The notes under the pieces: model-generated
What the model saw: only the letters and a program-made list of their open reading frames with translations
Told to the model about the DNA's origin: nothing
Databases searched by the model: none
Shown: positions 36,693 to 60,673 of the stretch, piece by piece
Layout of the letters: every line of letters begins with the position of its first letter
How positions within the stretch are numbered: the first letter of the stretch is position 1
DNA from: Ilex aquifolium
Lineage: Eukaryota; Streptophyta; Magnoliopsida; Aquifoliales; Aquifoliaceae
Length of the DNA stretch: 64,000 nt
Assembly: GCA_951799425.1 (NCBI GenBank)
Contig: OX637398.1
Span: 19,540,270 to 19,604,269, forward strand
Reading direction: 5' to 3'
Made by a program: the position numbers and the translations under genes

Positions 36693-37439
36693 TGATCCGA
36701 AATGTGTACACCCAAGTGCAGACGGTCAAGCTGTAGTAATAATCTGGTATAGGTCCAGAGTCGAATCCATAGGGACCTATTGTTGGTGTTTCGAGATAAG
36801 CAGTGGTGGAGACCGAATGGTTGTAACCCTTGAGATTTGAAGTTGTGTGGTGTATGGAATTTTTTGGACAGAATATAGGATTCTTTCCAAGAGGGTTTTC
36901 TAGACAAAATATAAGATAAGCTCAAATGTAAAAAGTCACTCTTCAGTTCGAGGATCTGGACATGTAATTAATCATCCGGTTTATTATACTTGTGCTTGAT
37001 AACTCAATTAACCCCTGTGTCAACAGCAAGTTAATCGGAAGATAAATGTGGATTGTGAGAATTAAGAGCATGGTTCCAATGTCTTTCTAGAAGTTTACAA
37101 GAATTGTCTGTGCCGAGACTCAACACATCTAAAAACAAGCAAGTGTTTCTACAAGGCATCCAACCATGACATTAATATTCCATTTCCATTCTTCAATTGA
37201 AGCACAATAATGGTGAAGATTGAAAGGTAGTCATGAAGATCTAGTCGGGGTACTTGCCTTGAACCAATGAGTCTTTCTATGCAAGAGTTATCTATATTAT
37301 AGAAAGTACTCACGGTTATACAAAGTACCTTAACTTTACTAGATGCAGTCAATCATTCAATAAGAAAGTGAAATATAAAGCATTAAGCATAAAAGATATG
37401 CACAGATATAACTTCCGGATGATTTATACATGTCCATTA

Positions 37440-37675
37440 CCTCTTACTAAAGAGTGAATGAGAAACTACTCACTCTTCATGGCTTTGGTAAAGCTAGAAA
37501 AGTGAATGATGCTCATGCCTCCAAGTAGAGGAGTTACAAAGTAAAACACAATAAGCAAGGAGCAGATCTTCGACGAAGAATAAGTGAATCACGTTCCAAC
37601 CTTCACGGCTTTGGCAAAGCTCTAGAAAATTGGAAGAGTTTCACTCCTCTAAGGGAAGAAAGAAGCTCAAGCAAT
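37440..37675. repeat. Degenerate ~125-bp duplication inside the LTR
   Basis: The phrase TTCATGGCTTTGGTAAAGCT (37478) recurs as TTCACGGCTTTGGCAAAGCT (37603). Both are followed by TAGAAAA and an AGGAGT- or CTCCTCT-type stretch. Confidence 0.55.
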
Positions 37676-37876
37676 GCAAGAGAATGAAACAAATATTGAA
37701 AGTAGAAGAAAACTAGTCACTTTTGGAGGGTTTCCTCCTCAACCAAAAGATGATCTATCTCCATCTATGCAAGTTATTGAAAGCCCAAGTCTAAGACTAA
37801 TTCTATAACAAGCTAAGAAATGTTGGTCTAGTGCCAATCCAACCCCCCTCCTCCTTTGAAACACCCACAATGGGAG

Positions 37877-37884
37877 TATTTATA
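37877..37884 (-). promoter_or_regulatory. LTR TATA box, Athila-like copy 1
   Basis: TATAAATA on the minus strand, in the LTR 114 nt downstream (element sense) of the nearest palindrome. Confidence 0.6.
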
Positions 37885-37998
37885 GGCAAAGATGAGGGGG
37901 CAAGGTAGTCTAGAGGAATAGTACAAGGCCTTCAAAGTCCAAGTGAAAGTCCCAATGTCCGGAGAGAAAATCAACCACTCTGCAGCCTGTCTGGGGAT

Positions 37999-38379
37999 AA
38001 CGTTCGAACATTGTATGGCGTTCGAACGTTGCTTCTATCTTTGCTTGATGGGTGTTCGAATGTTGTTTGGCGTTCGAACGTTGTTTCTGTCTTTTCTTGA
38101 TGGGCGTTCGAACTCCAGATGGGGTCTGATCTTCCCACTCAAGTGGCCTATGGTCTTCTGTGAAATCTATTTCCACACTCCATGCACAACTTGATGCTTT
38201 GCACTCAACATCTTGGTCCTCAAATAATTCAAGGGGACGTTCAAACGTGAGTTGACGTTCAAACGTGGTACTCAAGTACCTCAGCGTTTTCCTTCTTGGC
38301 TGCAACACGTCATGTCTCAGCATCTTGGTCCTCAATTAATTCAAAGGGGACGTTCGAACGTGAGTTGGCATTCGAATGT
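37999..38379. promoter_or_regulatory. ACGTTCGAACGT palindrome cluster in LTR (9 copies)
   Basis: Copies are at 37999-38012, 38019-38028, 38053-38062, 38071-38080, 38105-38114, 38237-38248, 38255-38266, 38350-38361 and 38368-38379. They are mostly in pairs 7-10 nt apart. Substitutions are often C-to-T or G-to-A within the CGs (for example ACGTTCAAACGT), as expected from decay of methylated cytosines. All lie upstream of the LTR TATA box in element sense. Confidence 0.85.
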
Positions 38380-38647
38380 GGTTGCTTTGTTCCAAGCTTC
38401 TCCAATTTTGCCCCAGGGCATGCTGGTGTTGCACGAAAGTTTGATATTAATTATTTTTGGACCTTTGTTCAATTTATGTCCTGAAATGTCATCATTTAAA
38501 CTCCATCAAAGTATAATTAGTCCTAAAAAGGCATAGTAGTATGCTGATTTTAACTACTAATCACACCCCAACCTAAATATTGCTAATCTCTAGTAATACA
38601 ACAACAATGGAATGCGACTTTATTTACAATGCCATTTTCGTAGGTCA

Positions 38648-38752
38648 TCCGATTGCATTTAGCATATGCAACAAGCCGTTGAACTGCTAGGTTTACCCTA
38701 GCGGACGAGTGTTGTCTCGTGAGGGTTTTCAATGAAGCTACCTACAAACTTC
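38648..38752 (-). other. Conserved non-coding block 2 with hairpin (copy 1)
   Basis: Minus-strand counterpart of 9650-9756: AAGTTTGTAGGTAGCTTCA, CTCACGAGAC, CGTCCGCTAGGG, then TTGCATATGCTAAATGCAA. The stem is identical to copy A's and the loop differs. Confidence 0.7.
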
Positions 38753-39654: not shown

Positions 39655-39750
39655 TTAAAGGCTCAATCTCGGCTAAATAGGGATATAATTTTGTAAAAGA
39701 AATGACTTAAGGCTCAAAATTAAGTCAAAGACGACCTAAGATCATTTCTC
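39655..39750 (-). other. Conserved non-coding block 1 (copy 1)
   Basis: In element sense: GATCTTAGGTCGTC, TTTGAGCCTTAAG, ACAAAATTATATCCCTA and GATTGAGCC, matching 8627-8710 in order. Confidence 0.65.
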
Positions 39751-40377: not shown

Positions 40378-41468
40378 TCACTCTCCTCCAGCTCCACCGC
40401 TCAGGAGGCGAAGAATCTCATCCTGTTTAGCTTCGATGCTAAGCATGATCTCTCGAAGTGAGCGCCGGGTGTTGGTGCTAGTACTGGGCCCTGCCTCCTC
40501 CTGAGTCTGCTCCTGAGCTCTCTCAGCATCTAACTCTCTCTCCTCCTCCTCATCTAACACATCCTAGACATCATCAGTGCCTCGGGTAGGGGGCACATCC
40601 TTTCTAGCCGCCGGGCCTTCACTGTGACCTTGGCTCCTCCGGAAGGAACTCTTGTTCAGTGGCCTCATTGGCTTCTGGATAGTCATCTCAGGCCTCACCC
40701 TAACCCCGTGGTCTGTGCACATCTCTGTCACCAGGGTGCCAAAAGGAAGCGAGTTCCTCTTCACATCGCATCCCTTCATCATCTTTGTCAAAATTAGCGA
40801 GGGGAGGTCTATGTTGTGGCCCCTCCCAAGTGCGTATAGTAATCGGGCTGCCTCTGGAAGGATCTCGTTCTTGCGCCCGATGGGGGCGAAGTTCGAGACC
40901 GCAATCAAATTCAACATTTTATACTTATCAGTCAACTCCCCTTGCCGAAAAAGTCTCCGATTCACCCAAGAGAATGTGCCCAATCCCGTCAACTCGGCCC
41001 CCACCACATCCATGCCCACCTTCTTCCTTGGAGGGTAGGTAGGCCTTTGTACCCAAGGCACCTCTTGTCTCAGCTCCCGGATGTACTCCTCATGCACATC
41101 AATATGGGCCCCCTTACATACGTTTTGATTGCCTCATTGATGATCTCGACGTTGGAATAGAACTCCTGTACCAAGTCAATCACGGCCTCTCCACCGTTTC
41201 TCAAGTATAACATCCACCCCCTCCTCTCAAAATTCTCAAAAATCCCAAACTCCGCAAAATCAGTCACCACCACATTCCGCTCACAAACCACAGCTTGGTT
41301 TCGATAGAAATTCTCATACCTGTTCGCTTTGAGGGTCGTGGGGAAGCGAGTTCGATCGTATCTTCGCACAATGGGCCTCCCCTCCCTTTCCTAAATGATT
41401 TCCTCCACCATATTGGGCTCTTGACTGACTGGGTTGCGCCTAGCAGGAAGCTTCACCCTTGGAGGCAT
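40378..41468 (-). pseudogene. ORF3, putative plant transposon protein family (copy 1)
   Basis: It starts at ATG 41468 (MPPRVKLPARRNPV). It has the core of the plant transposon protein family seen as a third ORF in Athila/Ogre-type elements: RYENFYRNQAV, GWMLYLRNGG, VQEFYSNVEII and VRGPILM, then ELTGLGTFSWVNRRL, AARLLYALGRGHNIDLPSLI and GTLVTEMC. The C-terminus is acidic and then helical (REIMLSIEAKQDEILRLLSG). An in-frame stop near 41393, a frameshift near 41080 and a stop at 40564 break it. The protein's function is not known. It has its own TATA-like box and palindrome cluster upstream, which suggests separate expression. Confidence 0.7.
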
Positions 41469-41683: not shown

Positions 41684-41690
41684 TTTTATA
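41684..41690 (-). promoter_or_regulatory. TATA-like box upstream of ORF3 (copy 1)
   Basis: TATAAAA on the minus strand, about 216 nt before the ORF3 start codon and 12 nt downstream (element sense) of the nearest palindrome. The leader between box and ATG is 5'UTR-like, with no upstream frame conserved. Confidence 0.5.
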
Positions 41691-41702
41691 GCCTGAGAGT
41701 TG

Positions 41703-41995
41703 ACGTTCGAACGTTCTTGACGTTCGAACGTGTGTAGAAGGTTTTTAAAAGGATCGTTCAAATGTGAGACTGGCGTTCGAATGTGGTGAGCTCCCAGTAC
41801 TTTTAGGTTATGTCAGAGACCAAAGTACTATAAGCTCATGGCATTCCAACGTTCTATTGGCGTTCGAATGTGGAAGTCTCGTTCAAACGTTCTAAAGGCA
41901 TTCGAACGTGATGAACTCCCAGTACTTTTGGGTTCCATCAGAGACCAAAGTACTGTAAGCAGATGACGTTCGAACGTCATCTGGCGTTCGAACGT
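41703..41995. promoter_or_regulatory. ACGTTCGAACGT palindrome cluster upstream of ORF3 (10 copies)
   Basis: Copies or near-copies are at 41703, 41720, 41753, 41773, 41842, 41860, 41880, 41898, 41965 and 41984 (12 bp each). They come as pairs 5-8 nt apart, and the pairs are separated by a longer repeated spacer (CTCCCAGTACTTTTnGGTT, then TCAGAGACCAAAGTACT). This is the same motif as in this element's LTR. Confidence 0.85.
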
Positions 41996-42268
41996 GGTGA
42001 GCAAAAAATAAATTTTTTTATGCACATTAGTATTCACAATAAAAGAGGGCTATACACACAAGTTTGAACCAAAAATTCATGGCGTCTCATGATAAGTCCC
42101 TACCCACGCTTTAGGTTGGTATTCTGGGACATTCCTTACTCGGCTTATGTTTACATTTTAGTCAAAAGAGTTTGTACATAAAAAGATTTTTACACTTTTT
42201 ACAAAAATTCAGACCCTTGGCTTTCATCCCCACATACACATTTTTCCACAGTTTTGTCAAAAAGCAGT

Positions 42269-42607
42269 CTAATCCGAGTCATCATCTGTCTCCGTGTCAT
42301 TTGAACCATCAGTGACTCTTCTAATTTCCTGTCGCACAAACTGGTTAAGCAAAGTACCAGAATAGGATGACGTGTCAGGATAATCCTTACTCTGTCCATT
42401 CACTATCCAGTCTAATCGATCGAGTGCGTGACCGAAAATTGGTTCAGAACACTGATTATATTCTTTCATGTGAAAGACCCAACCACATTGTTTACAAGCA
42501 CCAAGTCTTTTGGCATGACGACGTTTAACAAATGTTCTTCTGCCACATAGTGGTTTCGCTTGCTGTTCTCGAATTTCGTTCTTTCTTACCAATCTCGTTT
42601 TTCTCAT
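42269..42607 (-). CDS. Small Cys/His accessory ORF between pol and ORF3 (copy 1)
   Basis: I do not recognise a named family. From ATG 42607 it is 112 codons, open throughout, with no stop or frameshift. It is basic in the first half (MRKTRLVRKN, then KPLCGRRTFVKRRHAKRLG), then has CKQCGWVFHMKEYNQC (a CxxC...H...C zinc-ribbon-like group), and ends in an acidic tail (ETDDDSD). A decayed counterpart in Athila-like copy 2 (60960-61296) has the same order of motifs. An in-frame start further upstream (non-ATG, up to 42661) is possible. It is likely a nucleic-acid-binding accessory protein of the element; that function is inference. Confidence 0.6.
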   Translation of the reverse strand: MRKTRLVRKNEIREQQAKPLCGRRTFVKRRHAKRLGACKQCGWVFHMKEYNQCSEPIFGHALDRLDWIVNGQSKDYPDTSSYSGTLLNQFVRQEIRRVTDGSNDTETDDDSD

Positions 42608-44215: not shown

Positions 44216-44450
44216 TGTGACGCCCCAATTTCTGGGGGTCCTTTATTAACCGTAGACCATCCGTCAACCCGCGGAAATACTCGTGATAGTCGTATAACCC
44301 GACACCACGTCATTCACATGCTTTTAACCGGATTTACCATCCACAAGGTCAATTATACCTCAATTTATGTCCATTTATGTCATAGAAACCAAAGAAAACA
44401 AAGCCCAAAAGCATGGCTAAGCATTTTGAAAATTTCAATTTTTTTGGAAA

Positions 44451-44843
44451 ACCTTCTGGAAGGTCGACATACACCTACCGGAAGGTCGCTGAAAGAACAG
44501 TTAAATGAAAAGAATCAAATGCAAGAACTTCCGGAAGGTCGACATCAGTAGCAAAAACCTTCCGGAAGGTTCATTCCAGTAGCCAAAACCTTCCGGAAGG
44601 TTCATTCCAGAAAACAAAACCTTCCGGAAGATTTTGGCAGTCAAAAAGAAACCCAAGGCAAAACCTTCCGGAAGGTCCATTCCAGTAGACAAGTTCTTCC
44701 GGTAGGTTTTACTCCAGTAGCTAAAATCTTCCGGAAGGTTCATTCCAGTGGGCAAAACCTTCCGGAAGGTATTAGCCGTGAACAAGGCATCCAGGGTTTT
44801 TAGCAAAACCTTCCGGAAGGCCGACATACACCTTCCGGTAGGT
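44451..44843. repeat. ACCTTCCGGAAGGT palindrome cluster (12 copies, 3' LTR)
   Basis: 14-bp units start at 44451, 44473, 44526, 44557, 44588, 44619, 44663, 44694, 44726, 44757, 44808 and 44830. Five or so are perfect; the others have one or two changes (ACCTACCGGAAGGT, ATCTTCCGGAAGGT). Spacers are mostly 17-18 nt and many carry CATTCCAGTAGC, giving a ~31-bp period. The outer units are joined to CGACATACACC on both sides. Confidence 0.95.
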
Positions 44844-46422
44844 TTTCAGACTGTGAGCAAAAAAAATGGAATTCTTTCCCCTCCAAACCATCCTTAAAGC
44901 TACCCCATACGCTCCAAACTCATCCAACACATGTTTAATGAGATTTTCCATATAATACACAACTCATACAAGCTCTATCACAATTCATTCCATAATATAT
45001 ATACATCAAAATGGAATTTTGTTAAAAGTTTTACAAAACTCAAACTAAGGCCACAAGCCGGCCCCCTTCATGCTCGATGCTCTCCAAGTGAGCCATCCGC
45101 CGGTGCAAAACCCACACCTGAAATGTTTTTCCCATAAAGGGTGAGCCACGCTCAATAGGGTATCTCCTAAAGAGGCTACTCCCCAACCTAAATGCATATG
45201 AAATGTTCACATGCTATCAATCAACAATCCACAACAAGAATATATTCCATGTTGAAACATGTAATGCCATGCTATGAAATGAGGTGAGACTCACTCATGC
45301 ACAACAACCGAGCCCTTCCCGGCTCTACACATGCAAGTGCCAATGTATACCAATCCGTCATTTATGTTTCACATCAAATGACATTTTATTCTAGGGTCTT
45401 TATAGGGGTGGATGTTCATGGACTCACATCAAGGGTCACCCAACCCACACGGAATTGACGGACTTCCACCGAAGGTTCCGCGTACACCCACACACTTCAT
45501 GGACCGAGCCAAGAGAGTGCGTATCCCATCACCGGGTCTCTCACCCGAGGGATAGTCTAGCCTTTCTTGCTACCCCAACCCTATTAACCATGCAAACCGT
45601 GCGACTCGACTAGGTCACCGACCCATATTACCCGAGCCCACTCGCCATCCACCACACGTGGTGAGGACAACAATCATGCACACTCACCCACTAAATGCGA
45701 TGTTCCCGTGCATATGCAAAGTGATGCTCCATTGCAACAATAATTTAATGTTCGATATGGTATGAGTGACGTATGAACATTCTCATCACCCTTCACATAT
45801 TTCATGGCGAAATCATATCATTAGCATCTAATTCCCATAATACAATTTTCAAGCATGTTATCAACATACTAGAATTTCAAGGCATATATATATATAAACA
45901 CATAACATGCCCACCTTTTCACATAACACATGAATTCACATTGGGTTCATTTCACATATCCAATCATAGAAATCACATTTAGTAACTTCTAAATACCTAT
46001 CCAAGCTAGGATTTTCCTTTACCCATTTCAATACCCAATTTCACGACAATAGGCAAGAGATACATAGGCTATCATCCTACCCATTCCATAAAAGCATTAT
46101 AAGCTTGGAATAAACCTTAGTAGGAAGAAACCCTACCTCTTGAAGCGTGAGGAACGACTGAGGGAAGTTCCAAGACCCGATTAAAGCAAAAACCCTCACT
46201 TCTCGAAAATCCCGTACCTTGATCTTCGGTAAAACTTGCGCTTTTTGGTATAGCCGCGTAGCCCTCGATGAGTAGAGCGACTTTAATTCTTGGCTTGCGT
46301 GGATTCGAGGTCCGTAGCACCGTAGATCGTAGAGAGAAGGTGAGTTTTCTCTCTTTTCTCCCTCTTTCTCTCTATCGGCTGAACAATCGGCTGAACAATG
46401 GGGAAAATCTAATTTTTCCCCC

Positions 46423-46430
46423 TATTTATA
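46423..46430 (-). promoter_or_regulatory. TATA box in the 3' LTR
   Basis: TATAAATA on the minus strand. The copy in the 5' LTR at 54056-54063 is the one that would drive the element. Confidence 0.55.
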
Positions 46431-46818
46431 TTTTAGAATACTCGGCCCACAATTCGCCACACGTCCTATTTAATTTCGGGTCCGTTTTAATCCCGAAACG
46501 ACTAAATTTCGCTCTGGTTCAAGTTCGAATTATTTTTATTTTAACTTGTCTCTAATATTTCCCCAAACTTGGAAATTTTATAAAAATTTCGTGTACAGGG
46601 TCACCCGGGGCCCGTTCGTCTCGTAAAACGCGAAAATCCGACTATCTCGGAATTCAACGAAATTTGACGTGGTAACTAGATTTCGCGAGACGAATCCAAC
46701 GGTGAGGTCCGTTTCGTCATCCGAGTTCTAGAAAAATTCAGGTTTACAACCTGTACCATAGTGGTAATTTACCGTTTTGCCCTTTTTCACAAAGGTTTAA
46801 ATTTTCTCGGGTTTTACA

Positions 46819-46835
46819 TTCTTCCCCCCTTAAAA
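46819..46835 (-). other. Polypurine tract
   Basis: Minus strand CTTTTAAGGGGGGAAGAA directly before the 3' LTR; primer for plus-strand synthesis. Confidence 0.9.
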
Positions 46836-46912
46836 GAATTTCGTCCCCGAAATTCACACACTCATGCACACACAATCACACGCATATGCAACAGTCATAT
46901 AATACTAAATGA

Positions 46913-48878
46913 CTATAAGAATGTACCTCCATCCTCAAATAAGAAAGGATAATTGGCACGTATGGTGTCCTCACGCTCCCATGTTGCCTCCTCCACTCCT
47001 CGGTGCTGCCACAACACCTTCACTAGCCTCACGGTCTTGCCTCGCAAAACCTGCTCTCGGCTATCCATGACACGCACTGGTCCCTCCTCGAAGGTCCCAT
47101 CCGCATCAACTATGAGCTCGCCCCAATCCACAACATGCGTCGGATCTGGAGTATACTTCCGGAGCATGGAGACATGGAATACAGCGTGAACACCCGATAA
47201 AGTTGGCGGTAACGCCAATCTGTAGGCCACGGTGCCAACTCTCTCAAGTATCTCGAAAGGCCCAATATACCTCGGCGACAGCTTTCCCCGCTTGCCGAAT
47301 CTGACCACTCCTCTCTTAGGCATCACCTTCAAGAAGACATGATCCCCTGCCTCAAACTCCAGAGGTCGCCGCCGTCTATCGGCGTAGCTCTTCTGGCGGC
47401 TTTGTGCCGTGAGAAGACGCTTCCTTATCAGGTCCACCTTCTCCGAGGTGTCTCTTATTAAGTCTGGACCCGTAGAGGGTCTTTCTCCAACCTCAGTCCA
47501 ACAAACCGGAGAACGACAAGGCCTCCCATAAAGCGCCTCATAGGGTGCCATCCGTATGCTCGCCTGATAACTGTTATTGTAGGCGAATTTCACTAAGGGT
47601 AAATGCTCTTCCCAGCTACCCTTGAGATCTAGGACGCATGCCCGTAGCATGTCCTCTAATGTCTGGATGGTCCTTTCCGACTGACCGTCCGTTTGGGGAT
47701 GGTTGGCTGTGCTCATCCTCAACTGAGTCCCCATGGCTCGCTGGAAACTCTCCCAAAAGTGAGCCGTAAACCTGGGATCCCGATCTGATACTATAGACAC
47801 GGGTACCCCATGCAACCGGACTATCTCCCTTATGGACAACCTGCAGAATTCTTCCATTGTAAAGGTCATCCGCACCGCCAAAAAGTGCGCTGACTTCGTG
47901 AGCCGGTCCACTATCACCCACACCGCGTCATGCCCCCACGATGTCCGTGGCAAGTGGGTCACAAAGTCCATCGTGACGTGCTCCCACTTCCAATGGTTGG
48001 AGCAAACCAGCTGGTCTTTGGTGTTCAGCCTTAATCTGCTGACACGTGAGGCATCTACTGACGAAGTCGCCAATCTGCCTCTTCATCCCGCTCCAATAAT
48101 ACTGGCGACGAAGATCGTGATACATCTTCGTGCCGCCTGGATGCACCGCAAAACGAGAGCAATGGAACTCCCTGAGGATCTCCTCTCTCAGCTCCGCCGA
48201 CTGGGGAACCACAACCCTTCCCCTAAACCGAAGACTGTCATTCGAGTGAATGGCCCAGCCCTCGTCACCAGTACTCGCCTGCACTCGGTCCCTGATGGAT
48301 GATAACTCTGAGTCCTGTCTCTGGGACTCAATCACTCTGCTCAGTAGGGAAGGCGTAGCCACCAAGCTCCCTAAAACGCCCTGAGTCCGACCCCGATAAT
48401 GCAGCCTAAATTGGCCCACGGTCTCAAGCATCCGCCATTCCCGGGAAGCTACACTAGCTAAAACACCCCGTGACTTCCGGCTAAGCGCATCTGCCACCAC
48501 ATTTGCCTTACCAGGGTGGTAATGCAAAGTGAAGTCATAGTCTTCTAGGTACTCCATCCACCTACGCTGTCTCATGTTGAGGTCCCGCTGAGTGAAGATG
48601 TACTTCAGACTTTTATGGTCCGAAAACACCTCAAATTGTTCACCATATAAATAGTGGCGCCAAGCCTTTAAGGCAAAGACAACGGCCGCCAACTCCATAT
48701 CATGCGTAGGGTAATTCTGCTCGTGATTCTTCAGCTGTCGAGAACCATAAGCCACCACTCTCCCGGACTGCATCAAGACACAACCCAGTCCGTCCTTGGA
48801 GGCATCGCAATACACCGTGTAGTTTTGCCCCCTCTCTGGAACAATCAAGATAGGAGCTGAAGTGAGCCTCCTTTTTAG
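46913..48878 (-). pseudogene. Tekay-like RNase H, integrase and chromodomain-like tail
   Basis: This is the continuation of the gag-pol frame after an in-frame TAA at 48879-48881. RNase [36 protein letters not shown] and DALSRKS. Integrase zinc-binding region: [17 protein letters not shown] and CLTCQQ. A deletion near 47990-47996 then shifts the frame. The core follows in the new frame: MDFVTHLP (Asp), SDRDPRF (Asp) and WEEHLPLVKFAYNNSY (Glu region), then LSPRYIGPFEI. The last ~45 codons (VRLVKVLWQHRGVEEATWER...) match the chromodomain-like C-terminus of Tekay-type chromoviruses, which directs integration to particular chromatin. The two lesions would stop production of integrase. Confidence 0.88.
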
Positions 48879-51485
48879 TTATTGGAATGCCTTCTCACAC
48901 GAATCATTCCACTCGAACTTGACCTCCTTCCGGGTCAATCTAGTCATAGGTGCGGCTAGTCGGGAGAAGTCCTCGATGAACCTCCGGTAATACCCTGCCA
49001 ATCCCAAGAAACTACGTATCTCGAAGACTGACTTTGGCCTCTCCCAGCTCATAACTGCCTCGACTTTCTCCGGATCAACTGATACCCCCGAAGCCGACAC
49101 CACGTGTCCCAAAAATTTCACCTCCGTAAGCCAAAATTCACATTTACTGAATTTGGCGTACAATTGATGGTCCCTCAAGGTCTGGAGAACAATCCTCAAG
49201 TGACCCTCATGCTCCTCCTCTGTCTTGGAGTAGACCAGGATGTCATCAACAAACACCACAACGAACTGGTCTAAATAGGGCTGGAACACCCTATGCATGA
49301 GATCCATGAATGCCGCTGGGGCATTCGTCAATCCAAATGGCATCACTGTGAACTCGAAATATCCATACCGCGTTCTAAACGCCGTCTTAGGGATATCTAC
49401 CTCCCTAATCCTCAACTGATGGTAGCCCGTGCGGAGATCTATCTTGGAATAGACCCGTGCTCCCCTCAGCTGATCAAACAGATCATCAATCCTCCGCAAA
49501 GGGTACCTATTCTTGATGGTGACCCGGTTCAACTGCCGATAGTCTATACACAATCGAAGGGTCTTATCCTTCTTCTTGGCAAACAACACCGGAGCGCCCC
49601 AAGGTGAGGTACTCGGTCTAATAAAGCCCTTGTCCAATAATTCTTGTAATTGGACCTTGAGTTCTTGCAACTCAGCTGGCGCCATCCTATGTGGAGTCAT
49701 AGAAATGGGCGAAGTACCCGGATGCAACTCAACGCTAAAGTCCACATCCCTATGGGGAGGTAATCCCGGTAACTCGTTCGGAAAAACGTCCTCATACTCG
49801 CACACCACCCGAGGTAGACCCAATTCTTGTCTTGCCTCGTTCTCCAGGGTAAGGCTCGCAAGCCAACCCATCAATTGCCCATGCCATCGTGAATCATACA
49901 CGACTTGAGGCAAAACATCATGTTTTTCCCCCTGAAACTTGAAACAAACACCGTCCGGTGTATAGGCAGTGACCCTCTTCCTGTCACAATCAATAACGAC
50001 CCGATGCGCCGCCAACCAGTCCATCCCAAGGATGACATCGAATTCCGACATGTCCATAACCCTAAGGTCCACGGTGAGTAGAATCCCCGAGATCTCTAGC
50101 TCACAACCCCGACATATCTGATTCACACACACCCTAGCTCCTAGGGGTGAATTCACATATAACAGCTCCTCCAAGGTATCAACCTCTAAGCCCAAATCCC
50201 TCACACATGATGCAGAAATGAATGAATGTGATGCACCAGAGTCAAATAACACTTTAGCCCATAGGCGAGAAAGTAGAAATGTACCCTGAATGACTGACTG
50301 GTACACTGGCTCAGCCTGAGGTGTAATGGCGTAGACACGCCCCTGGGTCCCCGAAGTCCCGGCCTGCATGCCCTGTCCTCGGCCTCGACCCACGCCCTGG
50401 CCCATCTGGCCTGTCTGCGGAGTTTCCGCTCGGAAAGTGGTAGGGGTCTGAGTAGCGCCCTGGAACTGATACTGGCTTCCCTGGCCCATGGTGGGGTAGG
50501 GAGGAACAAGGTGTGTCTGCGACTGTCCTACTGATGACTGGGACTGAGGTGTCCCATAGCTCTGGGATCCTTGCCTTTGCGGACAATCCCGCCTCATATG
50601 CCCCGGTTGGTGGCAATGGAAACATGTCTTCTGGCCCGCCTGGTAGGTAGTCCTGAAGTTTCTCCCGCCTTGGGAAAGCTGACCTTGGCCTTGGCCTTGA
50701 TAGCCGCGGCCCTGTCCTTGAGGAGCAGAGGTCCTCTGTTTCTTCCCCGAACTAGAAGAAGAGGATTGGCCCTCCTTCTTCTTATCCTTAGCACCCGCCT
50801 CACGGATGCTTCGTGCATCGTCAACCTCCCTCTCAATGGCCATAGCTGTCTCGACCATAGAGTCCAAGTCTTGCAAGCGGAGGCCCACAATCTTTCCCCG
50901 GATGGATAGCTTCAACCCATCCTCAAACCTTCTTACCTTGGCCATATCCGTGGCCACGTAATCATCAGCAAATCGGGCTAATTCGGTGAACTTAGCCACA
51001 TACTCCATCACCGTCATTGACCCTTGCTTCAAATCTAGAAACTCTCGGGCCTTTGCATGTCGAACGGCCGTTGGGAAATATTTACCCATGAAGAGCTCCT
51101 TGAACTCTCCCCATGTCATGGCCTCTAAGTTCTTCGAGGCCGTCACCCAATCCCACCACAATTGGGCTTCTCCCTCTAGCTGGAATGCAGCTAGTCTTAT
51201 CTTAGTAGCGTCTGAGGTGACCTCCATCGCCCCTAAGATCTTGTTGACTTGCCGGAACCAATGGTCGGCCACCATCGGGTCCGCCCCTCCCATGAAGACT
51301 GGAGGTTTGTGTGCTTTAAACTGCTGGAGGTTACTCGTGCCTCCCGGCCCGGCATTTGCACTAGCTTGTGCAACTGTAGCCGCCATCATACCCATGGTTT
51401 CTGTAAACGCTCGTTGATCGAAGACCGGTGGTGGTTGGTTATTGTTCCGCCCACCGCCTCGACGTCCTCTTCTTCCACTTGCCAT
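48879..51485 (-). CDS. Tekay-like gag-protease-reverse transcriptase (868 codons)
   Basis: Starts at ATG 51485 ([12 protein letters not shown]). Gag domain about residues 55-230 ([43 protein letters not shown]). A basic/Ser-rich linker leads to a CCHC zinc knuckle at 288-301 ([14 protein letters not shown]). A Gln/Gly-rich region precedes the aspartic protease, active site DSGASH at 415-420 and ILGMDWL at 485-491. Reverse transcriptase runs from about 580, with [18 protein letters not shown] and the catalytic FVDD at 746-749, into the connection region ([12 protein letters not shown]). It ends at a nonsense codon just after CEKAFQ; family members continue in frame into RNase H. So gag, protease and RT could still be made but not RNase H and integrase. 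Confidence 0.92.
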
Positions 51486-51826
51486 CTACACACAAGTCAA
51501 ATGGCAATGGTACAACAACTTAGTATCCCTAGATAGGGATCAAAGTTAAAACGTTCAAATCTTTCTCATTGTCTCACTAGTAGAGCGTATGCCTCCAATA
51601 GTGGACCCTTACGCTTTGAACTTTCCCGTTCATTTGATTTCCCACTCCCAAGGTTAAGTTCTCAAACCCTAGTGTGTCCATTTCCATACACATTTTACCA
51701 TGCATACAATACACATATCACATATCACATAACATGTAGCAATTTAAGCAAATAACATGTAATGTACAATGAATGCAATGGTCTAGACCCATGCCCCATC
51801 AAGCCCTAGGTAAATCGCATACCTAT
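51486..51826 (-). other. 5' untranslated leader of the Tekay-like element
   Basis: Non-coding stretch between the primer-binding site and the gag start codon. Confidence 0.7.
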
Positions 51827-51838
51827 GCTCTGATACCA
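51827..51838 (-). other. Primer-binding site, initiator Met tRNA
   Basis: TGGTATCAGAGC on the minus strand, 3 nt inside the 5' LTR; complementary to the 3' end of plant tRNA-iMet. Confidence 0.93.
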
Positions 51839-52076
51839 AGCTGTGACGCCCCAATTTCCGGGGGTCCTTTATTAACCGTTGACCATCCGTCAACCAGCGA
51901 AAATACTCGTGATAGTCGTATAACCTGACACCACGTCATTCACATGCTTTTAACCGGATTTACCATCCACAAGGTCAATTATACCTCAATTTATGTCCAT
52001 TTATGTCATAGGAACCAAAGAAAACAAAGCCCAAAAGCATGGCTAAGCATTTTGAAAATTTCAATTTTTTTGGAAA

Positions 52077-52469
52077 ACCTTCCGGAAGGTCGACATACAC
52101 CTACCGGAAGGTCGCTGAAAGAACAGTTAAATGAAAAGAATCAAATGCAAGAACTTCCGGAAGGTCGACATCAGTAGCAAAAACCTTCCGGAAGTTTCAT
52201 TCCAGTAGCCAAAACCTTCCGGAAGGTTCATTCCAGAAAACAAAACCTTCCAGAAGATTTTGGCAGTCAAAAAGAAACCCAAGGCAAAACCTTCCGGAAG
52301 GTCCATTCCAGTAGACAAGTTCTTCCGGTAGGTTTTACTCCAGTAGCTAAAATCTTCCGGAAGGTTCATTCCAGTGGGCAAAACCTTCCGGAAGGTATTA
52401 GCCGTGAATAAGGCATCCAGGGATTTTAGCAAAACCTTCCGGAAGGCCGACATACACCTTCCGGTAGGT
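52077..52469. repeat. ACCTTCCGGAAGGT palindrome cluster (12 copies, 5' LTR)
   Basis: Same array as in the other LTR, with independent changes: the first unit is perfect here but TTCTGGAAGG in the other LTR, and two units have lost symmetry (CCGGAAGTTT, CCTTCCAGAAG). Confidence 0.95.
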
Positions 52470-54055
52470 TTTCAGACTGTGAGCAAAAAAAAAGGATTTA
52501 TTTCCCCTCCAAACCATCCTTAAAGCTACCCCATACGCTCCAAACTCATCCAACCCATGTTTAATGAGATTTTCCATATAATACACAACTCATACAAGCT
52601 CTATCACAATTCATTCCATAATATATATACATCAAAATGGAATTTTGTTAAAAGTTTTACAAAACTCAAACTAAGGCCACAAGCCGACCCCCTTCATGCT
52701 CGATGCTCTCCAAGTGAGCCATCCGCCAGTGCAAAACCCACACCTGAAATGTTTTTCCCATAAAGGGTGAGCCACGCTCAATAGGGTATCTCCTAAAGAG
52801 GCTACTCCCCAACCTAAATGCATATGAAATGTTCACATGCTATCAATCAACAATCCACAACAAGAATATATTCCATGTTGAAACATGTAATGCCATGCTA
52901 TGAAATGAGGTGAGACTCACTCATGCACAACAACCGAGCCCTTCCCGGCTCCTCTACACATTCAAGTGCCAATGTATACCAATCCGTCATTTATGTTTCA
53001 CATCAAATGACATTTCATTCTAGGGTCTTTATAGGGGTGGATGTTCATGGACTCACACCAAGGGTCACCCAACCCACACGGAATTGACGGACTTCCACCG
53101 AAGGTTCCGCGTACACCCACCCACTTCATGGACCGAGCCAAGGGAGTGCGTATCCCATCACCGGGTCTCTCACCCGAGGGATAGTCTAGCCCTTCTTGCT
53201 ACCCCAACCCTATTAACCATGCAAACCGTGCGACTCGACTAGGTCACCGACCCATATTACCCGAGCCCACTCGCCATCCACCACACGTGGTGAGGACAAC
53301 AATCATGCACACTCACCCACTAAATGCGATGTTCCCGTGCATATGCAATGTGATGCTCCATTGCAACAATAATTTAATGTTCGATATGGTATGAGTGACA
53401 TATAAACATTCTCATCACCCTTCACATATTTCATGGCGAAATCATATCATTAGCATATAATTCCCATAATACAATTTTCAAGCATGTTATCAACATACTA
53501 GAATTTCAAGGCATATATATATATATATAAACACATAACATGCCCACCTTTTCACATAACACATGAATTCACATTGGGTTCATTTCACATATCCAATCAT
53601 AGAAATCACATTTAGTAACTTCTAAATACCTATCCAAGCTAGGATTTTCCTTTACCCATTTCAATACCCAATTTCACGACAATAGGCAAGAGATACATAG
53701 GCTATCATCCTACCCATTCCATAAAAGCATTATAAGCTTGGAATAAACCTTAGTAGGAAGAAACCCTACCTCTTGAAGCGTGAGGAACGACTGAGGGAAG
53801 TTCCAAGACCCGATTAAAGCAAAAACCCTCACTTCTCGAAAATCCCGTACCTTGATCTTCGGTAAAACTTGCGCTTTTTGGTATAGCCGCGTAGCCCTCG
53901 ATGAGTAGAGCGACTTTAATTCTTGGCTTGCGTGGATTCGAGGTCCGTAGCACCGTAGATCGTAGAGAGAAGGTGAGTTTTCTCTCTTTTCTCCCTCTTT
54001 CTCTCTATCGGCTGAACAATCGGCTGAACAATGGGGAAAATCTAATTTTTCCCCC

Positions 54056-54063
54056 TATTTATA
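54056..54063 (-). promoter_or_regulatory. TATA box in the 5' LTR
   Basis: TATAAATA on the minus strand, about 1.6 kb upstream (element sense) of the palindrome cluster, which would therefore be in the transcribed leader. Confidence 0.6.
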
Positions 54064-54452
54064 TTTTAGAATACTCGGCCCACAATTCGCCACACGTCCT
54101 ATTTAATTTCGGGTCCGTTTTAATCCCGAAACGACTAAATTTCGCTCCGGTTCAAGTTCGAATTATTTTTATTTTAACTTGTCTCTAATATTTCCCCAAA
54201 CTTGGAAATTTTATAAAAATTTCGTGTACAGGGTCACTCGGGGCCCGTTCGTCTCGTAAAACGCGAAAAATCCGGCTATCTCGGAATTCAACGAAATTTG
54301 ACGTGGTAACTAGATTTCGCGAGACGAATCCAATGGTGAGGTCCGTTTCATCATCCGAATTCTAGAAAAATTCAGGTTTACAACCTGTACCGTAGTGGCA
54401 ATTTACCGTTTTGCCCTTTTTCACAAAGGTTTAAATTTTCTCGGGTTTTACA

Positions 54453-54457
54453 GATAG
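54453..54457. repeat. Target-site duplication, right copy (GATAG)
   Basis: GATAG directly after TTTTACA. The Athila-like integrase frame resumes here with CCAAAGGAAGGGGG. Confidence 0.95.
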
Positions 54458-55949: not shown

Positions 55950-56359
55950 TGATTCGACTTGTTTTATATCATACACCCAAGTATAAGTGGTCAAATTATA
56001 GTTTTCTTGGTCTAAGTCCAAGATCGATCCCAAGAAGAGTTTTAATAATTCGAATTCAAAATAGAAACAGTAAAGTTGTTGTTAATGTAGCGAAAATAAG
56101 ATAGCTTGTGGTGTGAGCTTAGATTGATAACTAGTATGATTAAATAAAGTGCGTAAATAGATTGTTAAAGACAATAATATGAAAAGATACTCGTCAGTTT
56201 AAGGATCCCATATGCTTTATCTTTGTTAAGTACTGAAAAATGCCACCTTACAACAATTAACTTTCCTCTCACTTGGAAAGTCAACCGGTAGGTCTAATGT
56301 ATAGTAAACACAACAACTTCTTAGGTTAGCTGGTGTTATATATGTCAATTGACTAATTT

Positions 56360-56690
56360 AAGTAAACCAAAAGGACAAGCCATTTACCTTCCGACAAAAA
56401 AGGACAAGCCATTCATGAGGAATACCGAAACTACTCAATTTTTAGTTTAATATTATGTATCAGTTAAATGTCCCTAGTGAACCAGAAGGATAAGCCATTC
56501 AGGAGGATCACTTAGGTCATTAATCTGACAGCTTTATATACCAGTTAAACGTCCCTAGTGAACCAGAAGGACAAGCCATTCAAGTGGATCACTTAGGTCA
56601 TTAATCTGATAGTGTTATACACCTTACAACAGTAAAACATCCTCAGTGAACCTGTAGGTCAAGCCATTCCTTTGGAACACCATAGATATT
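56360..56690. repeat. ~81-bp tandem repeats inside the LTR
   Basis: The phrase TCCCTAGTGAACCAGAAGGA starts at 56472 and recurs at 56553. A more diverged unit starts at 56640 (TCCTCAGTGAACCTG) and a partial one near 56360. Each unit includes AAGCCATTC and CACTTAGGTCATTAATCTGA-type words. Confidence 0.8.
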
Positions 56691-57280
56691 CAACCGGCAA
56701 GTTGATGATTCACTGATGACATAATTCCGGACTATGTAGTAACACCCAATTACGTACATCAATGTATCATGCATGAAGTTCATAATGATATATAATATAA
56801 TAGAGTATATATAAATATAACCATCCAACAATTAAGGGAGGTATATATATATATATATAGTATAATAAAACATCGGCATTTCCACAACTTAACCAGTGTT
56901 ATACATATGTTTACCCTTCGCTGAAGGGTATAAGGAGACTACTCATGCTCCATTGCTATAAACAAGCAAGAAGTGCGGGTAATTCTCATTATAGTATTAA
57001 ATAAAATACAGACACATATACTTCTTTCGGAAGGAATAACTGAAATACTATCATCCTTAATATTGATTAAAATATAAAGGTGACGGCAGTTCAACTTTCC
57101 AAGTAGAAAGATATAACAAAAATATAGAAATACAGAGTTTTAGCTGGAGAGTAGGTCGCACCGAATCTGGAATATTTCTATGACTTTCTCTCTTTCCTTT
57201 CTTTTCTTTTCCTTCTATTATTTTTTCTCTCCTGGAGTTCCTCTCCCCTTGGCCCGGCTGGAACATGAAGAAGACTAGCC

Positions 57281-57288
57281 TATTTATA
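57281..57288 (-). promoter_or_regulatory. LTR TATA box, Athila-like copy 2
   Basis: TATAAATA on the minus strand, 50 nt downstream (element sense) of the first palindrome. Confidence 0.6.
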
Positions 57289-57338
57289 GAAAAAAAGAAG
57301 CAGGAGGTGGAATGATCAACTTGAGTCGCCAAGAAGGA

Positions 57339-57371
57339 CCGTCCGGACGCCATCAGCACCGTCCGGACGGT
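57339..57371. promoter_or_regulatory. CCGTCCGGACGG palindrome pair in LTR
   Basis: Copies at 57339-57350 (CCGTCCGGACGC) and 57358-57371 (perfect 14-bp ACCGTCCGGACGGT), 7 nt apart and upstream of the LTR TATA box in element sense. Confidence 0.85.
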
Positions 57372-57632
57372 GGTGCTTTGCTGGATCCTGATCTTTTTGT
57401 TGTGCTTGCCATTTTTGGTTGATTTACAGTTGCCTCCCTTGTTGTTTCAAGCTTTAATCAATTGTTTCTTGATACTTTTGGACAATTCCGCACAAAACCC
57501 TGAAATTTCAAACAATATATACATAAAAACCCTAGTTTACGCACAAACTCTAATTGATAGTTTTTAATTGTTTTATCTTAAAAATTTAACTTATTTAATT
57601 ATCCTAATTTATATAATAATTAGAGTTAATCA

Positions 57633-59332
57633 CACTCCCCAACTTAAACTTTACTAGTCCCTAGTAAATATAAAAAAATATTAACAAAATAAAATACAAA
57701 CAGAGGTAAAATCATTTTTGTAGATTTTGTCACGATTGCATTTAGCCTATGCAGCAATCCTTTAAACCCCTAGATGATCTCTAGTGGACAAGTTTTGCTT
57801 GTGAAGGTTTTTAGTAAAGCTACCTACAAACTTCAGTAGTTAGGAGATTATAATTCATATTTTTCACAAATAAAATTAAATTAATATTCCTGATCATTAC
57901 AAGAGTAACACACGTTAGTTATAACATTGTCCATATATTTTTCTAAAAACTTGTGTATGTGTATAATGCTTCTTTTATTTAAAAATCAGTTAAGAAATAT
58001 TACCATCTTTCATGGTAGTCTTGATGTCAATACTTCCTGAAATACACTCAGCAAAGAATACACATACGTTATAGTGACTATTCCCTCAATAATTACATGT
58101 GATTGGAATATTGTTAGCAAAGCAAATAATATCACATGTAGTATATTAGAAGAACGGTTATTCGAATAAAATTGGAATTTGATATAATCACATGAAAAGA
58201 TATTAACACTACATTAGATATATTATTAACATTCTCATTTGATAGGATTAATACCAGTATATGATCTCTGGAATCAAAAAGGACTTTCTTTGGGTTGTAA
58301 CGTGGCCATTGGCTTAGGGTTTAAAAAATGACGTTAATGGGATTCAAAAGCTACCTTTATTGTGGCACACCTCTTTTTAGCTTTTTAAGACTTTGCATTT
58401 TTATCCTTTCCATTTTTCACTTGCTTGGCTCTTTTCTTTCTGATTTTCTCTTTAAATTTCTTTTCATGGGTTCTTCTTTTTGCTGTTTAGTAAATACCCC
58501 CCCCCCCTTTTTTTTTCTCTCTTGCTTTTCTATATCCTTCTGATTTAAAAGAGGATGCAAGAAAATTAGATAGCAAAAAGTAGGTTTAATATATTTTCAT
58601 GTGGCTCGGGTATTTTTTTCGGGTTTCACGAAAAGAATTTATACTATTTTAGGCTCAATTATGGTTGACTAAGGATATAATTTTGTAAAAGAAATGGTCG
58701 AGGCTCAAAATTAGTCAAAATGGCCTAAGATCATTTTCCAGAAATCATATACTTGTATAATTCCTTAGTAAAAGAATTTTAAAGATAATGCTAATAATGC
58801 AATCTAACAAGTGTTAATCAAAACAAAACTAATGAGATTATTCAAAGAAAGTTTACCGTTGAATCGAAGATTCTTATTTGAGTAGATGTAGAATATCTCT
58901 TCAAGAAAGATTGGCTCAAATCATGTAATTGGTTTTACATCTCCACTATATATGAAAAGAGTGTAAAATTTCACAAGGTTTCTAAAATAAAGAAATTTAT
59001 TTGTGCTCATAAGAGTAAGTTTTAAACAAAAAAATTAAGATAATACATAACTAAAATATGAAAATCTTGCATGATCAGATTAAAGTTTATTTTTGAAAAG
59101 CATAGGAATATTAATCTAATTTAATTGCAGCTTATATGAAATAATCCTCCTAACTTAAAAACATAAGTTTCATATTAACTACCAAAAGCAAACTTAAACA
59201 TAAACAAGTTCAAAATCAACACAAGTTCAAAACAGAAATTAAATTAGAGTGCATAATTTAAAAGTTGAGTGAAAGATAGCAAAGTTTTTGTAGAATCTGC
59301 AGTCTTCAAGAAGTAGATGGTCCTTCACCGAA
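57633..59332 (-). other. Non-coding 3' module of Athila-like copy 2
   Basis: It contains the polypurine tract next to 57633, the conserved block with a weakened hairpin (57731-57837), the second conserved block (58642-58737) and homopolymer runs (58498-58517: C then T). It matches copy 1 at 38563-40377 in order. No gene. Confidence 0.65.
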
Positions 59333-60413
59333 TCACTCTCTCAGTAGCCTCAAAATCTCAACTTGATTTTGCTCATAATCATCCGTACGCTGATTGAGTT
59401 GATTAACAATTCTTTTCAATCCTAAGAAAATCTTTCTGTCAATTTTGGCATCTACTGGTACATATGGCTGATCTTCTTGTGGTGGAGGCTGTTCTTGTGG
59501 AAAGAATTCTTCGGGTACTTGGAATGGCTCATCTTGTTGTGTAAGTGGTGCTTCGGGTTGTTCTTCAGGCTATACTCCATGACTCTTCTTTAAAGAATTT
59601 TTATCTAACGGTCCAAAATGTTCCACCGTTTTCCATGAAGGATTAACAATCACTCCCTTGTTCCTGCATAATTGAGAACATAGCATATGGAAGTGAGGGT
59701 TTCTTTCTATTCACTGTAAGCAACATTTGGTCCATGATTAAGTTTGGAAGATTAATTGTGTGTCCCATCCCAAAAGCATATACAAAGTAGGCCTGCTCTG
59801 TATAAATCTGATTGTTCTGAGCTCGGGGTAACAAACTTTTTACTGTAATCATATTCAGAATTCGGTATTTGTCTGTCAGATCCCCTTACTTTATATATTT
59901 ATTTGGTCTACCCCAAACAAACTCTGGATTACCCGTCAATTCTCTCTCTACGTCATTCAAATCAGGTAATTCGGTGTAAGGATATTGCGAGTTGGGTGGT
60001 CTTTGCATGGGCTGAAAAAATTCGGCTATAGTAGCCAGTGTAACTTGGAAAACAATACCCCGAACAAATACACGCAATTGTCGTTCTCCAATTATTTCTA
60101 CATTACTATAAAACTCACGGACCAAGCAATCATAAGCAACAGAGCAACAGTTGTAGATCTAGCATAATGTAACCATCCTCTTTCAACAAGAATTTGTCTC
60201 ACTCCAATGTTTTCAAAATCCTAAAAAATAACTGGCCTTTTAGAAATGATAGTTTTAGACATAAAATTAGCATCGTACCAGGCCTGTTGTTCAAAATTCT
60301 CAAACATCACCTCATTGTAGATATTTCCTGGTCCAGGTTGTTGTGGAGGTGCTTGAGGTTGATCCCTTTGTGTAAGACTTGAAGATCCTCTCGTTTGACG
60401 CCTCGAATCCATC
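59333..60413 (-). pseudogene. ORF3, putative plant transposon protein family (copy 2)
   Basis: Starts at ATG 60413 (MDSRRQTRGSSS). It shares with copy 1: ARYxxxF-equivalent YDANFMSKTII, VREFYSNVEII, VRGIVFQV, LNDVERELTG, YFVYAFGMGHTINLPNLI and a C-terminal VEILRLLRE helix at the TGA (59333). Broken by several stops and shifts near 60230, 60125, 59885 and 59643. The protein's role is unknown. The N-terminus is Gln/Pro-rich, unlike copy 1. Confidence 0.65.
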
Positions 60414-60623
60414 TTTTTGTTGATTTCTCTCCAAATACTTGGTTTCAATTAATTTCAATCAGTAGAAACCTTCAAAATGTAATGGGTAAGTGAATAATTG
60501 GAGAAAATTTGAAGAAAAACGGCCGAGTATAACAGATTTGAGAGGAATCCTTTGGAGAAAACCGATTTTTTTGAATTCTGGCTGCGAGGGAGATGAAACT
60601 GATCGGTTTTTGCATGGAAGGAG

Positions 60624-60631
60624 TATTTATA
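60624..60631 (-). promoter_or_regulatory. TATA-like box upstream of ORF3 (copy 2)
   Basis: TATAAATA on the minus strand, about 211 nt before the ORF3 ATG and 9 nt downstream (element sense) of the nearest palindrome; the same geometry as in copy 1. Confidence 0.5.
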
Positions 60632-60640
60632 TGAGCACTG

Positions 60641-60673
60641 CCGTCCGGACGCTAGCACCACCGTCCAGATGGT
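60641..60673. promoter_or_regulatory. CCGTCCGGACGG palindrome pair upstream of ORF3
   Basis: 60641-60651 (CCGTCCGGACG) and 60660-60673 (ACCGTCCAGATGGT, two changes), 8 nt apart. Same motif as in this element's LTR. Confidence 0.8.

What the first reader, a model, noticed from the sequence alone, without database searches (positions are those of the whole stretch)
36693..60673. Family-specific CG-centred palindromes placed just upstream of TATA boxes, in the LTR and again before ORF3
In both Athila-like copies that keep ORF3, one short palindrome is clustered at exactly two places: in the LTR upstream of its TATA box (copy 1: nine ACGTTCGAACGT at 37999-38379, TATA 37877-37884; copy 2: two CCGTCCGGACGG at 57339-57371, TATA 57281-57288) and directly upstream of a TATA-like box ~210 nt before ORF3 (copy 1: ten at 41703-41995, TATA 41684-41690; copy 2: two at 60641-60673, TATA 60624-60631). 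The sequence differs completely between the two copies while position is kept. Inference: these are operator/enhancer sites for a symmetric DNA-binding factor, co-ordinating genomic RNA and ORF3, with the motif co-evolving per family. VANC proteins of Arabidopsis VANDAL transposons bind family-specific short motif arrays to undo silencing; ORF3 or the small Cys/His ORF is a candidate binder here.
Basis: partly seen in the sequence, partly recalled or inferred. Interest (0 to 1): 0.88.

Follow-up and report, generated by a model that had tools for sequence, protein, structure and literature searches.

The report
Paired palindromes before retrotransposon promoters
In one plant genome, Athila-like jumping genes repeat a short mirror-symmetric DNA site in front of two likely start points, one for the whole element and one for an extra gene, a layout also known from an unrelated group of plant jumping genes, so it probably marks a shared way of switching such elements on.

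Summary
The clusters are real and recur genome-wide. ACGTTCGAACGT occurs 12048 times in the host's 800 Mb (backward-read control 44), CCGTCCGGACGG 1403 (10). In loci chosen by protein similarity, 45 of 50 family-1 copies have at least two exact GTTCGAAC before ORF3; in 40 of 50 a palindrome centre lies exactly 18.5 nt from a TATA-like box. Sites tend to pair 17-20 nt apart. Non-CpG palindrome columns vary less (4.7%) than spacers (16.6%).

Best reading: enhancer sites for a dimeric activator, used in the LTR and again in an internal ORF3 promoter. A sister family has ORF3 but lacks the block; 9 of 9 loci without detectable ORF3 lack such sites.

A VANC-like, element-encoded binder is not favoured, because similar palindromes occur in chromovirus-like elements and differ between close relatives there. 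It is not excluded. The small Cys/His ORF matches Pfam Viral_NABP (carlavirus cysteine-rich protein), an unexpected find.

The layout has a precedent: Sireviruses (Ty1/copia) carry palindromic boxes in the LTR and upstream of ENV (PMC2829016). This is a new variant, in Ty3/gypsy. Binder, promoter activity and ORF3 transcription are untested.

The parts
36703..38563 (-). Copy 1 (family 1) 3' LTR, read on the minus strand; TG...CA ends
   Evidence: edges read by eye
37999..38379 (-). U3 array of 9 GTTCGAAC-type palindromes (up to 2 mismatches in the inner 10-mer), four pairs 18 nt apart and one single
37877..37884 (-). LTR TATA box; nearest palindrome centre 121.5 nt upstream
40400..41468 (-). 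Copy 1 ORF3, broken; one open piece matches PF20167 above cut-off (54.4 bits), another below it (22.1)
41684..41690 (-). TATA box of the putative ORF3 promoter; first T 18.5 nt from the nearest palindrome centre
41703..41995 (-). Pre-ORF3 array of about 10 GTTCGAAC-type palindromes, mostly in pairs 17-19 nt apart; CpG o/e 1.5
42269..42607 (-). Small Cys/His ORF, open: PF05515 Viral_NABP match, 24.6 bits (cut-off 23)
55960..57632 (-). Copy 2 (family C) 3' LTR
   Evidence: edges read by eye
57339..57370 (-). Pair of GTCCGGAC palindromes in U3, centres 20 nt apart; TATA at 57281-57288 is 56.5 nt from the nearer centre
60624..60631 (-). TATA box of the putative ORF3 promoter, 15.5 nt from the nearer palindrome centre
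60641..60672 (-). Pair of GTCCGGAC-type palindromes before ORF3, centres 20 nt apart, one with two mismatches
59333..60412 (-). Copy 2 ORF3, broken; two open pieces match PF20167 below its cut-off (37.1 and 29.9 bits, cut-off 45)
60960..61338 (-). Copy 2 small Cys/His ORF, broken into two open pieces, alignable to copy 1 (50 and 57% identity); the 64-aa piece alone has no Pfam match
7784..8125 (.). Third Athila-like fragment: internal block with CTACCGGTAG/TACCGGTA palindromes at 8001, 8058, 8085, 8111 (left edge approximate)
9837..11430 (+). LTR of the third fragment (right edge not delimited); palindromes at 10292 and 10325
44216..54452 (-). Chromovirus-like Ty3/gypsy element (label recalled; no chromodomain match) inserted in copy 1, 5-bp duplication GATAG, LTRs 98.35% identical, with CTTCCGGAAG-type arrays at 44528-44820 and 52077-52446

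Best explanation
The palindromes are binding sites for a dimeric sequence-specific activator, most likely a host transcription factor or a small family of them that reads a symmetric core around CG. Arrays in U3 drive the genomic RNA. In ORF3-bearing families 1 and C a second set of sites sits at short, nearly fixed distance from its own TATA box and makes an internal promoter for ORF3, so both RNAs answer to the same factor. Pairs 17-20 nt apart (a little under two helical turns) suggest two dimers side by side. Different families settled on different variants of the core. SHOWN: sites, pairing, fixed TATA distance in most family-1 copies, recurrence of position, lower variation of palindrome columns, and presence or absence of the block between families C and B. 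INFERRED: activator, promoter, host origin of the factor, ORF3 transcription.
For: Genome-wide excess 12048 against 44 and 1403 against 10 for the patterns read backwards. Loci taken by small-ORF protein similarity (50, the window's own copy among them): 45 with at least two exact cores before ORF3; 40 with a palindrome centre exactly 18.5 nt from a TATA-like box. 212 of 374 adjacent-site distances are 17-19 nt. Over 47 aligned loci, mean mismatch is 4.7% in non-CpG palindrome columns against 16.6% in spacers within the array (Mann-Whitney P 7e-10); the TATA columns are at 2%. CpG o/e 1.04 and 1.5 in the two copy-1 arrays against 0.34-0.65 around. In six aligned loci, families C and B differ by one clean block of about 250 bp holding palindrome pair, TATA and leader, ending about 5 nt before the ORF3 ATG. 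Without detectable ORF3: 0 of 9 loci have a repeated CG-centred palindrome in the 1.2 kb after the small ORF. Similar palindromes in chromovirus-like LTRs argue for a host factor.
Against: No expression, footprint or methylation data. 3 of 50 family-1 loci have no array (L022, L031, L057) and 10 of 50 lack the 18.5-nt spacing. The stretch between the small ORF and the array also varies little (9.7%), so the palindrome columns are only about twofold more conserved than that. In the LTR the TATA distance is longer and less constant: 99.5-122.5 nt in family 1 (6 of 6 measured) and 55.5-58.5 in family C (4 measured; none found by the pattern in L015 and L017, the latter read on the wrong strand). 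Three family-B loci have ORF3 without palindromes. An acceptor-like TGCAG|GA site, present in 6 of 6 family-B loci, is also kept in 6 of 8 family-C loci, so splicing could serve ORF3 there too. The one family-A LTR seen has no perfect palindrome array. Two of the nine ORF3-less loci have a lone TGACGTCA. The cores share little beyond CG symmetry and may need several factors. One genome; related copies are not independent.
Confidence: 0.62

Rival explanations
1. VANC-like: the element's own protein (the small NABP-like zinc-finger ORF, or ORF3) binds its family's palindrome to activate it or undo silencing, and motif and protein co-evolve.
For: The small ORF matches PF05515 at up to 53.7 bits and PF01623 at up to 28.3. 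A cysteine-rich protein of this kind (chrysanthemum virus B p12) is described as a transcription factor and weak silencing suppressor (PMC12172455, passages). The small ORF is next to the array.
Against: The small ORF is alignable over its finger across families with different or no arrays (49-82% identity; weak, since specificity could still differ). The chromovirus-like element carries arrays, and two of its three long ORFs gave no match to either protein family. Family A has an open small ORF and no ORF3 found, yet no perfect array in the one LTR seen.
Confidence: 0.13
2. Host-silencing substrate: the palindrome-rich region is kept because it forms hairpins or siRNA templates, as argued for maize Sirevirus LTRs (Bousios 2016, recalled; not held).
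For: Palindromes are CpG-rich and their CpG columns decay: 12.8% mismatch against 4.7% for non-CpG palindrome columns, as expected of methylated DNA.
Against: It does not predict a fixed distance to TATA, paired sites, or a second array only in front of ORF3.
Confidence: 0.1
3. Neutral tandem-repeat expansion or shared descent of one minisatellite, without function.
For: Parts of the arrays are tandem duplications: 125 nt at 41772-41997 and 52 nt at 38001-38113. The stretch upstream of the array is also fairly conserved (9.7% mismatch).
Against: Spacers between palindromes vary 3.5-fold more than non-CpG palindrome columns. Copy 1's pre-ORF3 region and LTR share no match of 60 nt or more at E<=1e-6. 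Spacing to TATA is the same in 40 of 50.
Confidence: 0.08
4. RNA-level signal (dimerisation or packaging) acting in the genomic RNA.
For: Short CG palindromes can make kissing contacts (recalled); both sites lie in the genomic RNA when the 3' LTR is counted.
Against: Sites lie upstream of TATA boxes, in U3 rather than in the 5' leader; up to nine or ten copies.
Confidence: 0.03

Closest known systems
Sirevirus (Ty1/copia) RM boxes, Bousios et al. 2010, PMC2829016 (abstract, parts 2 and 3 of the main section, other passages)
   Same: Palindromic CG-containing boxes whose sequence varies between elements; arrays in the LTR upstream of a TATA box; further boxes upstream of ENV in nine ENV-bearing elements and none in the linker of four ENV-less ones; CpG islands; an internal ENV promoter was proposed.
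   Different: Other superfamily; no CGG-CCG core; sites paired 17-20 nt apart; a TATA box at short fixed distance before ORF3, whereas the authors could not conclusively identify a promoter; a presence/absence block between sister families; also in chromovirus-like LTRs.
VANC/VANDAL of Arabidopsis, Hosaka et al. 2017, PMC5735166 (abstract and passages)
   Same: Short motifs in non-coding arrays that differ between families and evolve by tandem duplication.
   Different: VANC21 motifs lie in one orientation and are bound by the element's own protein; here sites are symmetric, cross lineages, and no binder is shown.
Athila-type ENV-like ORF expressed from spliced RNA (predicted acceptors, as cited inside PMC2829016, passage)
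   Same: ORF3 downstream of pol; family B has an acceptor-like TTGCAG|GA about 60-85 nt before the ORF3 ATG.
   Different: Families 1 and C have a TATA-plus-palindrome block in front of ORF3; most family-C loci keep the acceptor-like site as well.
Betaflexivirus cysteine-rich protein (PF05515, PF01623)
   Same: Basic stretch plus Cys/His finger; PF05515 cut-off met by the window copy and nine further ORFs, PF01623 cut-off met by eight of those nine.
   Different: Encoded in an LTR retrotransposon; window copy is below the PF01623 cut-off; function untested.

Membership tests
Sirevirus-type RM boxes (as an architecture) | Palindromic repeated boxes in LTR upstream of TATA | tested here: met
Sirevirus-type RM boxes (as an architecture) | Additional boxes upstream of the ENV-like gene, absent when that gene is absent | tested here: met
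   present in families 1 (45 of 50 with two exact cores) and C (8 of 8, two decayed); 0 of 9 loci without detectable ORF3; but 3 family-B loci have ORF3 without boxes
Sirevirus-type RM boxes (as an architecture) | CGG-CCG core signature | tested here: not met
   cores GTTCGAAC, GTCCGGAC, TTCCGGAA, TACCGGTA; in the paper Tnd-1 also lacks it
Sirevirus-type RM boxes (as an architecture) | Element belongs to Ty1/copia Sireviruses | tested here: inconclusive
   copy 1 pol piece matches RT_RNaseH and RVT_1 and ORF3 matches PF20167; the Ty3/gypsy placement is recalled, no RT tree was made
VANC-target arrays | Bound by the element's own protein | not testable with these tools
   no binding data; indirect, weak evidence against
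VANC-target arrays | Motif confined to one element family | tested here: not met
   AACCTTCYGGAAGGTT in a chromovirus-like LTR and in an Athila-like family-B LTR; but VANC6 motifs also occur in an unrelated repeat (PMC5735166, passage), so the feature is not strict
Pfam Viral_NABP (PF05515) | Score above curated cut-off 23 bits | tested here: met
   window copy 24.6 bits; nine further ORFs 26.6-53.7 bits; 150 of 150 scored of 3095 candidate genome places above cut-off, 0 of 14 control genomes
Athila lineage | RT phylogenetic placement | not tested

The most novel reading that the evidence does not exclude
A plant Ty3/gypsy lineage carries a carlavirus-type cysteine-rich zinc-finger protein that serves as its own transcription activator and silencing suppressor, acting through the palindromes on both promoters: a retrotransposon analogue of a viral early regulator, with gene exchange between plant RNA viruses and LTR elements behind it.
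Probability: 0.1. Interest if true: 0.9.

Novelty: new variant of a known kind. Interest (0 to 1): 0.6.

Why it matters
How plant env-like genes are expressed is an old open point: splicing, readthrough, or an internal promoter that was proposed but not conclusively identified in Sireviruses. Here a discrete palindrome-TATA block, present in one sister family and absent in another, gives a natural experiment that can be tested directly. Recurrence of the same layout in Ty1/copia and (by label) Ty3/gypsy elements points to convergence or to a common host factor. The carlavirus-like protein, found above the curated cut-off at all 150 scored genome places, is a separate lead on virus-retrotransposon gene exchange.

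Tried and rejected
Structure prediction of the small ORF from window sequences alone gave mean pLDDT 43, unusable; no fold search was made. PDB sequence search gave only weak matches, the best to a ribosomal protein (E 0.037). Viral contigs: no relatives of the small ORF or of the RT piece; phage records: none for the small ORF. Copy-3 block as an ORF3 promoter: rejected, since no ORF3 was found in copy 3 or L098, a gag-like ORF (label by eye, not searched) lies upstream in relatives, and by position a weaker match to the block lies in another family's LTR (L099). Origin of the copy-1 pre-ORF3 block by LTR duplication: no match of 60 nt or more at E<=1e-6. Genome-wide counts for CCTTCCGGAAGG and for a CG-matched permuted control could not be had (service busy to the end), so the enrichment control is only the backward-read pattern, which is not CG-centred. 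Literature: 'Sirevirus' with 'palindrom' 13 papers, 12 listed; 'Athila' with 'palindrom' 26 papers, 15 listed; in these listings and abstract starts I saw no report of this layout for Athila. 'Viral_NABP' with 'retrotransposon' 0 papers; 'carlavirus' with 'Athila' 1 paper, listing only; 'GTTCGAAC' with 'LTR' and 'motif' 85 papers, 10 listed, none seemingly relevant.


Full report
What was checked. The window (G000:C8:19540270-19604269 of an unnamed 800-Mb genome) holds two Athila-like copies on the minus strand, nested with a chromovirus-like element, and a third Athila-like fragment at about 7.8-11.4 kb whose LTR reads on the plus strand. Exact 12-mers are few (four and one); the rest are near matches. 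Over 422 family-1 sites (up to 3 mismatches) in 50 loci there are 629 mismatches: 229 CpG transitions, 78 other changes at CpG positions, and 322 outside, of which 266 are at the last base.

Chance. In 50 shuffles of the whole window no CG-centred 8-mer palindrome occurred more than twice in 500 nt; the window has clusters of 5, 4, 4, 8 and 8. The test of one palindrome shared by both places gave 0 of 2000 for copies 1 and 3 but 95 of 2000 for copy 2, so copy 2 rests on the genome: CCGTCCGGACGG 1403 against 10, and ACGTTCGAACGT 12048 against 44 for the backward-read control. That control is not CG-centred; a CG-matched control could not be run.

Recurrence of position. Twelve regions were picked because their hits were spaced like the window's; 9 of 12 show both clusters (L006, L007, L010-L014, L016, L017), and in each of these ORF3 and the small ORF are detected. 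L008 and L009 show one cluster; L015 has two clusters 6.75 kb apart and neither ORF detected. This sample is biased by choice. The next two were chosen by protein, not by motif. Family 1: the 30 loci handed out by the search plus 20 of the other 120 listed, chosen for variety. 45 of 50 have at least two exact GTTCGAAC before ORF3; L022 and L031 have none, L057 one, and L042 and L060 keep decayed sites. 40 of 50 have a palindrome centre 18.5 nt from a TATA-like box and one has 17.5. Adjacent distances are 17-19 nt in 212 of 374. In the LTR the pairs are again 18 nt apart (20 in family C), but TATA lies 99.5-122.5 nt away (family 1, six measured) or 55.5-58.5 nt away (family C, four measured).

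Constraint. In an alignment of 47 loci (three without array dropped) mismatch to the column majority is 4.7% in non-CpG palindrome columns, 12.8% in CpG palindrome columns, 16.6% in non-CpG spacer columns, 16.6% in the leader, 9.7% upstream of the array, and 2% in the TATA box (P 7e-10 for palindrome against spacer). One of the eleven scored sites is a poor match. Columns and copies are not independent, so the P value is indicative.

Families compared. From 150 listed Viral_NABP places I took 20 for variety. Family C (8 loci): ORF3 is found in all 8 and a TATA box in each; six keep a perfect GTCCGGAC 15.5-16.5 or 33.5-36.5 nt before it, and two (L079, L084) have decayed forms. Family B-like (6 loci): ORF3 is found in three (L073, L075, L076; that of L076 has an early stop) and none of the six has a CG-centred palindrome there. 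All six carry a TTGCAG|GA acceptor-like site, about 60-85 nt before the ATG where ORF3 is found; six of eight family-C loci carry one too. L075 and L076 also have TATATAAA just upstream of it, so a plain promoter there is not excluded. Family A (6 loci): no ORF3 found by tblastn. Of the nine loci without ORF3 found, none has a repeated CG-centred palindrome; L072 and L077 have one TGACGTCA each. The alignment of three B and three C loci shows one clean block of about 250 bp present only in C: palindrome pair, TATA, leader, ending about 5 nt before the ORF3 ATG. Gain in C or loss in B is not settled; family 1, whose ORF3 is far more distant (about 35% identity), also has such a region.

Who binds. 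For host factors: AACCTTCCGGAAGGTT sits in the chromovirus-like LTRs of the window and, with one CpG change, in the family-B LTR; GTACCGGTAC sits in a relative of the chromovirus-like element (near-identical gag start, by eye) and in another LTR-like stretch. The small ORF is 49-82% identical between families with different or no arrays, which is only weak evidence against it as the binder. The plant factors that come to mind (HSF for TTCnnGAA, LBD for TCCGGA) are recalled, not tested.

The small ORF. It matches PF05515 Viral_NABP (24.6 bits in the window copy; 26.6-53.7 in nine others). Eight of those nine, not the window copy, also pass the PF01623 Carla_C4 cut-off. In the own genome 150 of 150 scored places (3095 candidates) are over the PF05515 cut-off, and 0 of 14 control genomes. 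Such viral proteins are described as silencing suppressors and, for chrysanthemum virus B, as a transcription factor (PMC12172455, passages). This is a lead on function, not a demonstration.

Comparison. Bousios et al. 2010 (PMC2829016; abstract, parts 2 and 3 of the main section, other passages) describe the same layout in Sireviruses: palindromic boxes upstream of the LTR TATA and 77 of 79 linker copies upstream of ENV, none in the linkers of four ENV-less elements. They proposed but could not conclusively identify an internal promoter. The present case is thus a new variant of a known kind, in another superfamily by label, with a candidate core promoter attached. I saw no report of it for Athila in the listings named in Tried and rejected; most subscription papers are not in that library.

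Limits. One genome, no expression or methylation data, related copies, no RT phylogeny, and a service that stayed busy for the last genome-wide counts.

Noticed in passing
window 42269-42607 (-); genome-wide: Small ORF of Athila-like elements matches carlavirus-type cysteine-rich proteins (PF05515; PF01623 in most); 150 of 150 scored places over the PF05515 cut-off, 3095 candidates.
   Followed up: partly
window 44528-44820 and 52077-52446: Chromovirus-like element (LTRs 98.35% identical, 5-bp duplication GATAG) has AACCTTCCGGAAGGTT arrays with about 31-nt period; a relative in L088 has GTACCGGTAC four times in its LTR.
   Followed up: partly
window 7784-8125; L090-L099: Internal block with CTACCGGTAG palindromes in an element whose relatives carry a gag-like ORF (by eye) upstream; by position a weaker match lies inside the LTR of another family (L099).
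   Followed up: partly
window 10310-10350; 44570-44750: Linkers between palindromes share CAYTCCAGTAGC between the third Athila-like LTR and the chromovirus-like array; could be chance.
   Followed up: no
L073, L075, L076 against L079, L083, L084: ORF3 without the TATA-palindrome block in one family and with it in its sister; an acceptor-like site precedes ORF3 in the first and is kept in most loci of the second.
   Followed up: partly
window 6075-7782 and from about 11440: Mutator-like transposase-like ORFs interrupted by the third Athila-like fragment (label by recall).
   Followed up: no
window 21611-23742 (-): FAR1/MULE-type transposase-like ORFs (label by recall).
   Followed up: no
window 31991-35993: Second chromovirus-like stretch, 80.7% identical to 46109-50092; no cluster of perfect CG-centred palindromes between 24 and 36 kb.
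   Followed up: no
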